The notes under the pieces: model-generated
What the model was told of the DNA's origin: nothing
Databases searched by the model: none
The model's input: the letters and a program-made list of their open reading frames with translations, nothing else
Origin: Parvularculaceae bacterium
GTDB lineage: Bacteria > Pseudomonadota > Alphaproteobacteria > Caulobacterales > Parvularculaceae
Assembly (NCBI GenBank): GCA_020446945.1
Contig: JAGRDS010000001.1
Location: forward strand, 376,807-440,806
DNA length: 64,000 nt
Reading direction: 5' to 3'
Program-made: the position numbers and the translations under genes
In this document: one piece after another, positions 32,536 through 35,622 of the stretch
Layout: every line of letters begins with the position of its first letter
How positions within the stretch are numbered: position 1 is the stretch's first letter

Positions 32536-33671
32536 GGCGCTAGCTCCAACAGAACGGCGTTCAATATCCGGCGCCCGTGCGTTGTTGAAAAAACTCGTTC
32601 GCCGTCTTGCGAGATCAGGCCGCGCTGCGCCAGCGTTTCGATCCGGCCTTGCAGCTGTCGCAGTTGCGTCTGCGACAGGCGAATTCCCTCAATCGTGCGC
32701 AGCCCCATGGCGAGGCGCTCCGTTAACGCTTCATCATCCGATAACGGATCAAACAATGCGGCGCCGCAGCCGGAGTTCTCCACAAGCTCCATATAATCGT
32801 TCGGGCGAAGCGCTGTCTCGCTTGCATGCCTGACATTTCCAATCGTCACGCGCCCATGCGCCCCCGGGCCCACGCCGACATAATCGCATTGACGCCAATA
32901 CAGGAAATTGTGGCGCGAGGCTTCGCCCGGCGCCGCGTGGTTTGAAATTTCATAGGCGGGAAGCCCGGCGGCGTTTGTCAGTTCCTGCGTCGCATCGAAC
33001 AAGTCGGCGGCGGTGTCCTCATCCGCCGGCGCCCAGCGATTTTTTGAAACCGCCCGGTCAAATGCCGTGCCGGGTTCGATCGTCAATTGATATAGCGAAA
33101 GATGGTTCAGCCCCGTCGCGATCGCTCGGTTCAATTCGCGTTCCCAGGCGGCGAGCGTCTGGCCGGGGCGGGCGTATATGAAATCGGCGTTTACGCGCGC
33201 AAAGACAGATTGCGCCGTCTCGATCGCGCGCATCGCCGTCGCCGCGTCATGGTCGCGACCGAGAAAGCCCAGCGCCTCGTCGTCGAAGGATTGAACGCCG
33301 AGAGAAATCCGATTGACGCCGGCAGCGGCGAAGGCGCGAAAGCGATCGATTTCGGCGTCGGTCGGATTGGCTTCCAACGTTATCTCAGCGCGGGGCGCAA
33401 AGCCCCAAAACGTCTCGCAGGCCTCGATCGCGGAGGCGATTACGGAAATCGGCGCAAGGCTCGGCGTGCCGCCGCCGAAATAGAGGCTCGAAAGGCGCCT
33501 TCCGCCTGTTTGCGCCGCCCAATATTGAAGGTCCGTTAAAATCGCGCGCGCGAACCGCTCCGTGTCTGCGCCGCGATCGCGATAGACATTGAAATCGCAA
33601 TAAGGGCAAATCCGCGCGCAAAACGGCCAGTGAATATAGACGCCGAATTCCATTTCGCGCGCGCTATTCAT
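32532..33671 (-). CDS. hemW: Heme chaperone HemW (radical SAM)
   Basis: 379 residues. Radical SAM Cys set C18, C22, C25 in CARICPYCDF, SAM loop YFGGGTPSL, and the HemW-specific HNFLYW motif (HNxxYW) that separates it from the oxygen-independent coproporphyrinogen oxidase HemN. The C-terminal winged-helix HemW domain is complete. The start at 33671 overlaps the rdgB stop (ATGA), as in many genomes where the two are coupled. Confidence 0.93.
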   Translation of the reverse strand: MNSAREMEFGVYIHWPFCARICPYCDFNVYRDRGADTERFARAILTDLQYWAAQTGGRRLSSLYFGGGTPSLAPISVIASAIEACETFWGFAPRAEITLEANPTDAEIDRFRAFAAAGVNRISLGVQSFDDEALGFLGRDHDAATAMRAIETAQSVFARVNADFIYARPGQTLAAWERELNRAIATGLNHLSLYQLTIEPGTAFDRAVSKNRWAPADEDTAADLFDATQELTNAAGLPAYEISNHAAPGEASRHNFLYWRQCDYVGVGPGAHGRVTIGNVRHASETALRPNDYMELVENSGCGAALFDPLSDDEALTERLAMGLRTIEGIRLSQTQLRQLQGRIETLAQRGLISQDGERVFSTTHGRRILNAVLLELAP

Positions 33672-34291
33672 TCCAGGCAGGCCCGGACCAGCTTGGCGAA
33701 GGCGTCCGCTCGGTGGGAGATGCCTTGTTTTGTTTCCGGATCGAGTTCGGCGAAGGTTTCGGAATATCCGTCAGGAACGAAAACCGGATCGAAACCAAAA
33801 CCCATGGCGCCGCGCGGCGGGAAGCTGAGAGAGCCTTCGACCGTACCTAGAAATGTTTCCACATGCCCGTCCGGCCAGGCGAGGCAGAGGCAGCAAACGA
33901 ACCGCGCCGTGCGGTCCGGCGAACCCGACGCCTCCAACTCGGCTCGAACCCGGTCCATCGCCAAATAGAAATCGCGTCCATCGGGGGTCTCGGCCCAGTC
34001 CGCCGTATGGACGCCCGGTCGTCCGTCGAGCGCGGCTACCTCCAATCCGGAATCGTCTGCGAGCGCTGCGACGCCGCAGGCGCGTGCGGCGGCGAGCGCC
34101 TTGATCTTTGCGTTCCCCATGAAGGTTTTTTCATCTTCGACAGGGACAGCGAGCCCCATTTCGCCGGCTGAGAGCGCTTCAATTCCGAAGTGGCGAACCA
34201 ATTCGTTGATTTCTTTGACTTTTCCAGAATTGTGGCTGGCGATAATGAGTTTGCCAGGGGTGAGTTTTCGATGGGTCAGATGTCGCTCCAT
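33668..34291 (-). CDS. rdgB: XTP/dITP pyrophosphatase RdgB (Ham1)
   Basis: 207 residues from ATG 34291; the frame continues open to 34387 but runs into the promoter of the divergent small-peptide gene. Motifs: LIIASHNSGKVKEI, catalytic ALADDSGLEVAALDGRPGV and the C-terminal SHRADAFAKL. It removes inosine and xanthosine triphosphates from the nucleotide pool. The usual upstream rph (RNase PH) is absent. Confidence 0.93.
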   Translation of the reverse strand: MERHLTHRKLTPGKLIIASHNSGKVKEINELVRHFGIEALSAGEMGLAVPVEDEKTFMGNAKIKALAAARACGVAALADDSGLEVAALDGRPGVHTADWAETPDGRDFYLAMDRVRAELEASGSPDRTARFVCCLCLAWPDGHVETFLGTVEGSLSFPPRGAMGFGFDPVFVPDGYSETFAELDPETKQGISHRADAFAKLVRACLE

Positions 34292-34334
34292 ATTGGTTTT
34301 CGAAAAAAAATTATCGTTTTTCGGCAAAAACCGC

Positions 34335-34362
34335 TTGCATCGTTTTTCGATAAGTGTATATT
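34335..34362 (+). promoter_or_regulatory. Sigma-70-type promoter of the small-peptide operon
   Basis: TTGCAT (34335-34340), a 16-nt spacer and TATATT (34357-34362), within an AT-rich patch. Transcription would start near 34369 and leave a leader of about 160 nt before the first start codon at 34528. Confidence 0.6.
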
Positions 34363-34445
34363 GATATTCAACAAGACGCTGATCCACGGCGCAACCGGCG
34401 GCAAGACCGGCGAAACAAGGAAAGACGACCAGTACAGCCAGAACG

Positions 34446-34479
34446 AAAAAAAGAGCGGCAGGGCAAGAGCCCGCCGCTC
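34446..34479 (-). terminator. Strong minus-strand intrinsic terminator without a minus-strand gene
   Basis: GAGCGGC (34453-34459) pairs with GCCGCTC (34473-34479), and GGGC (34461-34464) with GCCC (34469-34472), around a 4-nt loop with one bulged A. On the minus strand the stem is followed by seven T (A7 at 34446-34452). The nearest minus-strand gene to the right is irr, about 4.8 kb away, so it probably ends a short antisense RNA. Confidence 0.7.
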
Positions 34480-34545
34480 AGGAAAAACAGCCAAAACGCG
34501 TTCGCGCACCAACGAAAGGAAATTCAGATGTTACGCAATCACGCT
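34446..34545 (-). ncRNA. Predicted antisense RNA to the 43-residue peptide mRNA
   Basis: Inferred from a minus-strand promoter inside the peptide gene (34552-34580) and the terminator in its leader. The product, about 100 nt, would be fully complementary to the ribosome-binding site (34515-34520) and start codon (34528) of the sense mRNA and would carry a terminal stem-loop. This is how antitoxin RNAs of type I toxin-antitoxin loci are built. No expression data. Confidence 0.45.
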
Positions 34546-34659
34546 ACCTCGAACATCGGGTCTGTCGGCATTATTGTCAATGGTTTTGTGACAGTCGCAT
34601 CAGTAACGCTGATCGTCGCGGCCTATTTCACGGCCATCGGTCAGTTCGTCGCAGCTTGA
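34528..34659 (+). CDS. 43-residue single-span membrane peptide (possible type I toxin)
   Basis: ATG 34528 is preceded by AAAGGA with 7-nt spacing. The peptide has a polar N-terminus (LRNHATSNIGSV) and one hydrophobic helix of about 25 residues ending AAYFTAIGQFVAA. No database family is recognised. The C-terminal YFTAIG resembles YLTAIG in the 40-residue peptide at 42137. It has its own promoter and a long leader overlapped by a predicted antisense RNA. It heads a run with a 49-residue peptide, DUF2975 and XRE genes. Confidence 0.6.
   Translation: MLRNHATSNIGSVGIIVNGFVTVASVTLIVAAYFTAIGQFVAA
34552..34580 (-). promoter_or_regulatory. Antisense promoter inside the small-peptide gene
   Basis: Read leftward: consensus TTGACA (complement of 34575-34580), a 17-nt spacer, and GATGTT (complement of 34552-34557), which keeps the key A at position 2 and T at position 6 of the -10 box. 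Start expected near 34545. Confidence 0.45.
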
Positions 34660-34689: not shown

Positions 34690-34839
34690 ATGTCACGGGC
34701 GATTAACCTCATTATGGCGGCCGCGCTCGCAGCGGCCGCGCTCGCCGCCGCCGTCAGCCTCGCCCGCGTTTCGGGCTCGGTTGAAAAAGGCGAACAGCGC
34801 GTCTGCGCTGAGCGGCTGTGCGGCGTCGTGTTCTTTTAG
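34690..34839 (+). CDS. 49-residue exported or membrane-anchored peptide
   Basis: ATG 34690 with GGAAAGGGG upstream. An Ala-rich hydrophobic helix (INLIMAAALAAAALAAAVSLA) covers residues 5-25 and is followed by a polar tail with two Cys (RVCAERLCGVVFF) that could form a disulfide outside the cell. No family recognised. It lies 30 bp after the first peptide and 34 bp before the DUF2975 gene, all in one direction, so an operon is likely. Confidence 0.5.
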   Translation: MSRAINLIMAAALAAAALAAAVSLARVSGSVEKGEQRVCAERLCGVVFF

Positions 34840-34873: not shown

Positions 34874-35395
34874 ATGATCAGGGCAACGGGGAAAGGATCG
34901 ATCTCGTCGATCCTCGCGGTGGGCCTTCATATCGTCAGGATTATCGCGTGGATTGGGTTCGCCGCTCTTTCCGCCGCCCTTGTCGCTCTGCCTCTCATAC
35001 CCCCTTTCGCAGAATGGGTCGCCCATCTCGACGGCGCCTCAATCGACGGCGAGATTGATATCGGCGCCGACGATTTCGTCGAGGTTCTGCGCCATTTCAT
35101 TTCTTTCGGCGTCGCGCTTTATGTCGTCGAGCGACTTCTGGAGCTTTTGAAGACGCTTCGCTTCGGCACGCCCTTCGTGAAAGAAAACGCCATCCGGTTC
35201 CGAAAGGTCGGCATCGCGCTTTTGTTCGGGGAGGTCTCGAAAATCGTCATCGGCATACTCGCCATGCTCACCGGCGCCGATGTCAATGCAGGCCTCGATT
35301 TTATGGTTTTCGTGTCGATCGCCGCAGTTTTCGTGCTGTCGGAAGTTTTTCATGAGGGCGCGCGCATGAAAGCGGAACAGGATCTCACGGTCTGA
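34874..35395 (+). CDS. DUF2975 membrane protein
   Basis: 173 residues from ATG 34874 (GGAGG upstream). Four hydrophobic helices in two pairs, with a soluble stretch after the first pair (HLDGASIDGEIDIGADDF). The FxxPFVxENAxRFRKVGIALL motif (here RFGTPFVKENAIRFRKVG) is typical of DUF2975. Such proteins are very often paired with a small XRE regulator, as here, with stop and start sharing one base (TGATG). Function unknown; a sensor or modulator role for the pair is a guess. Confidence 0.8.
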   Translation: MIRATGKGSISSILAVGLHIVRIIAWIGFAALSAALVALPLIPPFAEWVAHLDGASIDGEIDIGADDFVEVLRHFISFGVALYVVERLLELLKTLRFGTPFVKENAIRFRKVGIALLFGEVSKIVIGILAMLTGADVNAGLDFMVFVSIAAVFVLSEVFHEGARMKAEQDLTV

Positions 35396-35622
35396 TGTCG
35401 ATTTCCGTCAAACTGGACCGGGTGCTTCTGGACCGCGGCATGAGCCTGACGGAACTCTCCGAGCGCGTCGGCGTAACTATCGCCAACCTGTCCATCCTCA
35501 AGACCGGCAAAGCCAAGGCGATCCGCTTTTCGACCCTGGAGGCGATCTGCAAGGAGCTTGGCTGCCAGCCCGGCGACATCCTCTTTTTCGAAGATGACGG
35601 GCGGCCGGCCCGCGACGAATAA
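35395..35622 (+). CDS. Small XRE-family (YozG-like) regulator
   Basis: 75 residues, essentially one Cro/C1-type helix-turn-helix: [22 protein letters not shown] and [18 protein letters not shown], followed by an acidic tail. This is the YozG type of regulator that accompanies DUF2975 genes. It probably controls its own operon; no operator could be assigned. Confidence 0.87.

What the first reader, a model, noticed from the sequence alone, without database searches (positions are those of the whole stretch)
34335..34659. Candidate type I toxin-antitoxin: membrane peptide with an overlapping antisense RNA
A 43-residue single-span peptide gene has a good sense promoter (TTGCAT-16-TATATT) and a leader of about 160 nt. 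Inside the gene, facing left, is TTGACA-17-GATGTT. In the leader, on the minus strand, is an 11-bp hairpin with T7, yet no minus-strand gene lies within about 4.8 kb to feed it. The three parts together give an antisense RNA of about 100 nt that covers the ribosome-binding site and start codon. Hydrophobic peptides under such control are typical of type I toxins. The peptide belongs to no family I know.
Basis: partly seen in the sequence, partly recalled or inferred. Interest (0 to 1): 0.78.

Follow-up and report, generated by a model that had tools for sequence, protein, structure and literature searches.

The report
Antisense RNA-gated membrane peptide operon
A family of environmental bacteria (Parvularculaceae) carries, at one fixed place on its chromosome, a tiny membrane-peptide gene with a built-in promoter and terminator on the opposite strand, and selection on the DNA has kept that antisense RNA unit in all 47 versions found, so it looks like a real RNA switch resembling the controls on known toxin peptides, although whether the peptide is toxic has not been tested.

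Summary
A 43-aa single-helix peptide gene (34528-34659) has an antisense unit: TTGACA-17-GATGTT inside the gene facing left, and a 10-11 bp hairpin plus T7 in its leader, giving a ~100-nt RNA over the ribosome-binding site and start codon. Comparative data go beyond chance. The peptide occurs in Parvularculaceae (45 of 62 genomes at the profile search, two more recovered). All 47 distinct loci keep the antisense TTGACA at the same codons. The two third-codon positions inside that hexamer show zero changes on a 40-taxon tree, against ~11 elsewhere in the gene. 46 of 47 keep a strong minus-strand terminator. A relative lacking the peptide lacks the unit; two tandem paralogs without the unit lose the otherwise invariant Val codon. 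Best reading: a cis-antisense RNA that blocks translation of a membrane peptide, with SymR/SymE-like topology, under a second, transcriptional control. Transcription, repression and toxicity are inferred, not shown; type I toxin-antitoxin membership remains open (~50%).

The parts
34335..34362 (+). Sense promoter TTGCAT-16-TATATT of the peptide operon
   Evidence: Read directly; a pattern of its core matches 40 contigs in GTDB species genomes. Those titled to family or genus are Parvularculaceae; six are titled only Alphaproteobacteria, and four of these match contigs of family genomes by length
34310..34353 (.). Operator-like repeats (ATTATCGTTTTTCG 34310-34323; ATCGTTTTTCGATAA 34339-34353), probable binding site of the operon's own XRE regulator
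   Evidence: Near-identical in almost all related loci. The exact 16-mer occurs only here in the genome; the 1-2-mismatch hits mostly lie inside coding sequences. Assignment to the XRE protein is inference
34514..34520 (+). Ribosome-binding site GAAAGGA of the peptide
   Evidence: Read directly; covered by the antisense RNA
34528..34659 (+). ORF1: 43-aa peptide predicted as one helix (residues 3-42), family found only in Parvularculaceae
   Evidence: Homologs in 45/62 family genomes; coding signature in base changes; AlphaFold2 mean pLDDT 86.6, single helix; no significant match in Pfam, NCBIfam, PHROGs, PADLOC or PDB
34552..34580 (-). Antisense promoter inside ORF1: -35 TTGACA (34580-34575), 17-nt spacer, -10 GATGTT (34557-34552)
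   Evidence: TTGACAA in 47/47 loci; zero parsimony steps at both wobble positions inside the hexamer and at the first base of the codon giving -10 position 6
34446..34545 (-). Inferred antisense RNA, ~100 nt, complementary to codons 1-6, start codon, RBS and 3' leader
   Evidence: Promoter and terminator geometry; predicted lengths 92-117 nt in relatives; 5' stem-loop carrying the anti-SD stretch plus terminator in the fold. Transcript not observed
34446..34479 (-). Intrinsic terminator of the antisense RNA (hairpin 34479-34453, T7)
   Evidence: 46/47 loci strong, one (L106) degraded; many loci have a U-G pair that would be an A-C mismatch on the other strand
34690..34839 (+). ORF2: 49-aa peptide, hydrophobic N-terminus and C-terminal CxxxxCxxxFF
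   Evidence: Orthologs in the Amphiplicatus-like and Marinicaulis groups, two invariant Cys; stop/start overlap with ORF1 in most of them; not found in Aquisalinus-type loci
34874..35395 (+). DUF2975 membrane protein
   Evidence: Pfam PF11188 E=2.4e-11; same position in relatives
35395..35622 (+). XRE/HTH_26 regulator, start overlaps the DUF2975 stop (TGATG)
   Evidence: Pfam PF13443 E=7.6e-22; 79-97% identical at this site across the family
33668..34291 (-). rdgB/HAM1 nucleotide pyrophosphatase, divergent neighbour, with its own candidate -10 (GATAAT, 34315-34310)
   Evidence: adjacent in essentially all loci; candidate -10 found as GATAAT in 26 loci and as close variants in others

Best explanation
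The locus is a cis-antisense-RNA-controlled small membrane peptide heading an autoregulated operon. A promoter inside ORF1 makes a ~100-nt RNA from the opposite strand that ends at an intrinsic terminator in the ORF1 leader. It pairs with the RBS and start codon and blocks translation of ORF1. In most genomes with ORF2, its translation is also affected because the stop and start codons overlap. The operon promoter sits in an operator probably bound by the XRE regulator encoded last in the same operon, with the DUF2975 membrane protein as its likely partner or sensor. When that repression is lifted, operon mRNA outruns the antisense RNA and the peptide is inserted in the inner membrane. Shown by sequence and evolution: the peptide gene is real, and the antisense promoter and terminator are maintained by selection and occur together with the peptide. 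Inferred: transcription, translational block, XRE autoregulation. Guessed (about 50%): the peptide inhibits growth when overproduced, so that the pair is functionally a type I toxin-antitoxin module.
For: 47/47 distinct loci keep TTGACAA at the same codons. On a 40-taxon tree the wobble bases of codons 17 and 18 of the alignment (the two third positions inside the -35) have 0 steps. The XRE gene averages 9.7 per wobble site, and the other ORF1 wobble sites average about 11.5 (minimum 2); the first base of codon 17 changed 13 times. The codon-10 base that gives -10 position 6 has 0 steps although the residue varies N/S/K/T/R. Terminator strong in 46/47, at a predicted RNA length of 92-117 nt. 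TTGACA plus strict terminator occurs once in the window and never in 60 shuffles. G011 has operator repeats, an ORF2-like peptide, DUF2975 and XRE but no ORF1, no antisense -35 and no terminator; Aquisalinus-type loci keep ORF1 plus antisense but not ORF2, so ORF1 and the antisense unit travel together. In G026 two tandem ORF1 paralogs without the unit have Leu instead of the invariant Val and TTCAGA instead of TTGACA. Fixed synteny with DUF2975-XRE. Single predicted helix. SymR precedent: promoter embedded in the symE ORF, RNA complementary to the mRNA 5' end, second repression by LexA (PMC1891008). A poorly conserved sigma-70 -10 is documented for the alphaproteobacterium S. meliloti (PMC3616915).
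Against: No transcript data. The antisense -10 is weak (3/6 in the window) and the promoter scan did not list it. One locus (L106) has a degraded terminator. The 5' stem of the antisense RNA was not recovered by RNAalifold and is only modestly stable. Binding of XRE to the operator is inferred from proximity. Paralogs without an antisense unit in one operon argue against an extremely potent toxin, as does the absence of the C-terminal cationic residues common in membrane type I toxins (PMC8309996). Fixed vertical inheritance and intact genes fit an ordinary cellular function as well as a toxin.
Confidence: 0.76

Rival explanations
1. Non-toxic small membrane protein: the peptide is a normal subunit or regulator, for example a partner of the DUF2975 protein, and the antisense RNA only sets its level or timing. 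No toxin-antitoxin logic.
For: Apparently vertically inherited, intact in every locus examined, fixed operon with DUF2975 and XRE; tandem paralogs without their own antisense unit; no plasmid match and no viral-contig match to the promoter pattern.
Against: Size, hydrophobicity and antisense cover of RBS plus start codon are typical of type I toxins (PMC8309996); two layers of repression suggest the product is costly when made.
Confidence: 0.4
2. The minus-strand RNA is the leader of rdgB, and the hairpin is an attenuator or insulating terminator in front of rdgB, not an antisense regulator.
For: rdgB lies about 155 nt beyond the terminator on the same strand, and is the neighbour in essentially all loci.
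Against: A candidate -10 of rdgB's own (GATAAT, 34315-34310) lies nearer its start in many loci; G011 keeps rdgB at this site without the minus-strand promoter or hairpin; the hairpin is a strong terminator in 46/47.
Confidence: 0.07
3. The minus-strand RNA is mainly a trans-acting sRNA whose CU-rich anti-SD loop regulates other mRNAs; overlap with ORF1 is secondary.
For: The 5' region carries a conserved UCUCCUUUUCUU stretch in Marinicaulis; the leader complement next to the start codon is nearly identical across six Amphiplicatus-like loci (L001-L006).
Against: The conserved stretch is simply the complement of the ORF1 RBS; the RNA is absent where ORF1 is absent in the one case examined; no trans targets were sought.
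Confidence: 0.1
4. No antisense RNA: TTGACA is imposed by the conserved peptide motif Val-Asn and the hairpin acts in the sense leader.
For: Val and Asn are invariant in the peptide.
Against: Wobble bases under no peptide constraint are invariant; paralogs tolerate Leu at the Val site; the T-run follows the hairpin only on the minus strand, and U-G pairs fit only that strand.
Confidence: 0.03

Closest known systems
symE/SymR (Escherichia coli)
   Same: Antisense promoter embedded in the target ORF; short RNA complementary to the 5' end of the mRNA; target also repressed at transcription (LexA) (PMC1891008).
   Different: SymE is a cytosolic toxin related to MazE; here the product is a single-helix membrane peptide in an operon with its own XRE regulator and DUF2975. 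No sequence relation was found.
Membrane type I toxin-antitoxin pairs (TisB/IstR, Ibs/Sib, Hok/Sok, DinQ/AgrB, TimP/TimR)
   Same: Under 60 aa, hydrophobic, one predicted transmembrane helix, RNA control of translation (PMC8309996; details of the individual pairs partly from general knowledge).
   Different: No Pfam or NCBIfam family match; no cationic C-terminus; operon with an HTH regulator; toxicity untested.
yonT-yoyJ/SR6 (Bacillus subtilis SP-beta prophage)
   Same: About 100-nt antisense RNA and two small peptides in one polycistronic mRNA, with the antisense RNA over the RBS of one of them (PMC5848175).
   Different: Prophage-borne, antisense between the two genes; here chromosomal, fixed, and antisense at the 5' end of the first peptide.
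DUF2975 plus small XRE (HTH_26) gene pairs
   Same: The last two genes of this operon are such a pair.
   Different: I know of no published function for the pair; the literature search on DUF2975 gave only two incidental papers. The antisense-controlled peptide upstream was found only in Parvularculaceae.

Membership tests
Type I toxin-antitoxin system | Small (<60 aa) hydrophobic peptide with a transmembrane helix | tested here: met
   43 aa, GRAVY 1.22, best 19-residue window 2.23; one predicted helix 3-42
Type I toxin-antitoxin system | RNA gene with its own promoter and terminator, complementary to the toxin mRNA | tested here: met
   At sequence and evolutionary level only: 47/47 -35, 46/47 terminator, wobble constraint; transcript not observed
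Type I toxin-antitoxin system | Antisense RNA blocks translation or destabilises the toxin mRNA | tested here: inconclusive
   Geometry fits (start at about codon 6, end in leader, RBS and start codon covered); repression not measured
Type I toxin-antitoxin system | Overexpressed peptide is toxic | not testable with these tools
   Needs an expression experiment; paralogs without antisense unit in G026 weigh mildly against potency
Type I toxin-antitoxin system | RNA neutralises toxicity by preventing synthesis | not testable with these tools
   Needs a co-expression experiment
Known type I toxin families (Hok, Ldr, Ibs, TisB, Fst, TxpA and others) | Sequence homology to the family | tested here: not met
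   No significant match in Pfam, NCBIfam, PHROGs, PADLOC or PDB; no dedicated type I toxin database was available
symE/SymR | Antisense promoter inside the ORF, RNA over the 5' end of the mRNA | tested here: met
symE/SymR | SymE-type (MazE-related) product | tested here: not met
   Product is a 43-aa membrane peptide with no Pfam match
symE/SymR | LexA-controlled promoter | not tested
   No LexA-box search was made; the conserved repeats are ATCGTTTTTCGATAA

The most novel reading that the evidence does not exclude
A new, lineage-fixed class of type I-like module in which a toxic membrane peptide and usually a second, translationally coupled Cys-containing peptide are gated twice: by an antisense RNA whose promoter is written into the peptide's own codons, and by an XRE repressor and DUF2975 membrane partner encoded in the same operon, so that a membrane-stress signal would release the peptide.
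Probability: 0.3. Interest if true: 0.72.

Novelty: new member of a known kind. Interest (0 to 1): 0.55.

Why it matters
Type I systems are under-detected because peptide and RNA are both short and unannotated, and a 2025 paper still lists them only from Proteobacteria, Firmicutes and Tenericutes, with discovery biased to relatives of known loci (PMC12390103). Here an antisense RNA predicted from one raw sequence is supported by selection on synonymous bases across a bacterial family, without any RNA data. It gives a clean, testable case (silent changes remove the promoter) and ties an antisense-gated membrane peptide to the DUF2975/XRE gene pair, for which I know of no published function.

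Tried and rejected
Rfam on 30-40 kb of the window: nothing. Generic promoter scan: no promoter listed. The operator as a wider regulon: the near-matches in the genome are mostly inside coding sequences, so rejected. RNAalifold consensus gave only the terminator stem, with one pair showing double changes, so the 5' stem of the RNA is not claimed as proven. The strand comparison of hairpin energy was weak (antisense stronger in 28/47), so it is not used. The rdgB-leader reading was considered and ranked low.

Full report
What is there. The peptide gene is 34528-34659 (+), 43 aa, with RBS GAAAGGA at 34514-34520, a leader of about 160 nt and promoter TTGCAT-16-TATATT (34335-34362). On the minus strand, TTGACA (34580-34575) and GATGTT (34557-34552) are 17 nt apart inside the gene, and the hairpin 34479-34453 plus T7 ends the inferred RNA near 34446. 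On the left, rdgB (33668-34291) runs away from the unit.

More than chance. In the window, TTGACA followed 85-150 nt later by a strict terminator occurs once, here, and not in 60 shuffled windows. The generic scan found no promoter because the -10 is weak. A poorly conserved sigma-70 -10 is documented in the alphaproteobacterium S. meliloti (PMC3616915).

Distribution. The first search found the peptide in 15 of 61 related genomes, and a profile found it in 45 of 62 of the family. Only one weak hit in the order sample and one spurious hit in the class sample lay outside the family. A promoter pattern scanned over GTDB species genomes hit 40 contigs, once each. Those titled to family or genus are Parvularculaceae, including Marinicaulis, Amphiplicatus and Aquisalinus; six are titled only Alphaproteobacteria, and four of these match contigs of family genomes by length. 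Two further loci (L106, L107) were recovered by reading the rdgB-DUF2975 gap, giving 47 distinct loci. There is no plasmid match to the peptide and no viral-contig match to the promoter pattern.

Selection on the antisense promoter. All 47 loci carry TTGACAA at the same codons, 43-49 nt after the start codon. On a 40-taxon tree built from rdgB and XRE, the third bases of codons 17 and 18 (numbering of the alignment; residues 16 and 17 of the window peptide), the only two wobble positions inside the hexamer, have zero parsimony steps. XRE wobble sites average 9.7, and the other ORF1 wobble sites about 11.5 with a minimum of 2. Codon 17 is always NTT while its first base changed 13 times (Ile, Phe, Val, Leu). 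The base giving -10 position 6 (first base of codon 10) also has zero steps although the residue is Asn, Ser, Lys, Thr or Arg. The zeros fall exactly on the promoter. The remaining ORF1 codons show a normal coding pattern, with fewest changes at second positions.

The terminator. The antisense hairpin plus T-run is strong in 46 of 47 loci; L106 is degraded. The RNA predicted from start to T-run is 92-117 nt. Many loci have a U-G pair in the stem that would be A-C on the sense strand, and the T-run follows the hairpin only on the minus strand. The RNA folds into a 5' stem-loop carrying the anti-SD stretch, a linker and the terminator, but the 5' stem lacks consensus support.

Natural experiments. 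G011 keeps rdgB, operator-like repeats, an ORF2-like peptide, DUF2975 and XRE but has no ORF1, and its short leader has neither the antisense -35 nor the terminator. Aquisalinus-type and g5 genomes keep ORF1 plus the antisense unit but have no recognisable ORF2. G026 has three tandem ORF1 copies. Only the first has the antisense promoter and terminator; copies 2 and 3 carry Leu where Val is otherwise invariant, and TTCAGA instead of TTGACA. So the Val codon is constrained at least partly by the promoter, and ORF1 plus antisense unit is the core.

Surroundings. ORF1 is followed by ORF2 (34690-34839; hydrophobic N-terminus, C-terminal CxxxxCxxxFF), which overlaps the ORF1 stop in most Marinicaulis-type loci. 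Then come a DUF2975 protein and an HTH_26/XRE regulator with overlapping stop and start codons. The XRE protein is 79-97% identical across the family at this site, and the order rdgB / ORF1 / DUF2975 / XRE is fixed. The promoter lies in repeats of ATCGTTTTTCGATAA conserved in almost all loci and not reused as a regulon in this genome. That the XRE protein binds them is inference.

Mechanism. The antisense RNA covers codons 1-6, start codon, RBS and 3' leader, so blocking translation initiation is the most likely action. Transcriptional induction through the operon's own regulator would let mRNA exceed the antisense RNA. The topology matches symE/SymR, where the RNA's promoter lies inside the ORF and LexA gives a second control (PMC1891008). 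The peptide matches membrane type I toxins in size, hydrophobicity and single helix (PMC8309996) but not in a cationic C-terminus, and belongs to no family in the libraries searched.

What is shown and what is not. Shown: anatomy, coding conservation, and selection on the antisense promoter and terminator. Inferred: transcription, translational repression, XRE control. Open: toxicity. I put the antisense unit at about 0.9, its repression of ORF1 at about 0.8, and a true type I toxin-antitoxin function at about 0.5.

Noticed in passing
window 34690-34839: ORF2 is a second small peptide with an Ala-rich hydrophobic N-terminus and a C-terminal C-x4-C-x3-F-F motif; two invariant cysteines in 15 aligned relatives. 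It looks like an exported or membrane-anchored peptide.
   Followed up: partly
L113 3001-3694 (G026): Three tandem ORF1 copies separated by a repeated GGGCGGCATC...GATGCCGCCC inverted repeat; only the first has the antisense unit.
   Followed up: partly
window 34310-34315: Candidate -10 (GATAAT, minus strand) for rdgB, overlapping the operator repeats, so the same regulator might affect rdgB-hemW.
   Followed up: partly
G006, G009, G022, G062, G069, G075, G076 (DUF2975 search): Two DUF2975 genes close together at this locus in several genomes.
   Followed up: no
genus g3 genomes (family search): None of the ten g3 genomes has a DUF2975 match or the peptide, suggesting loss of the whole operon or its gain in the other groups.
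   Followed up: no
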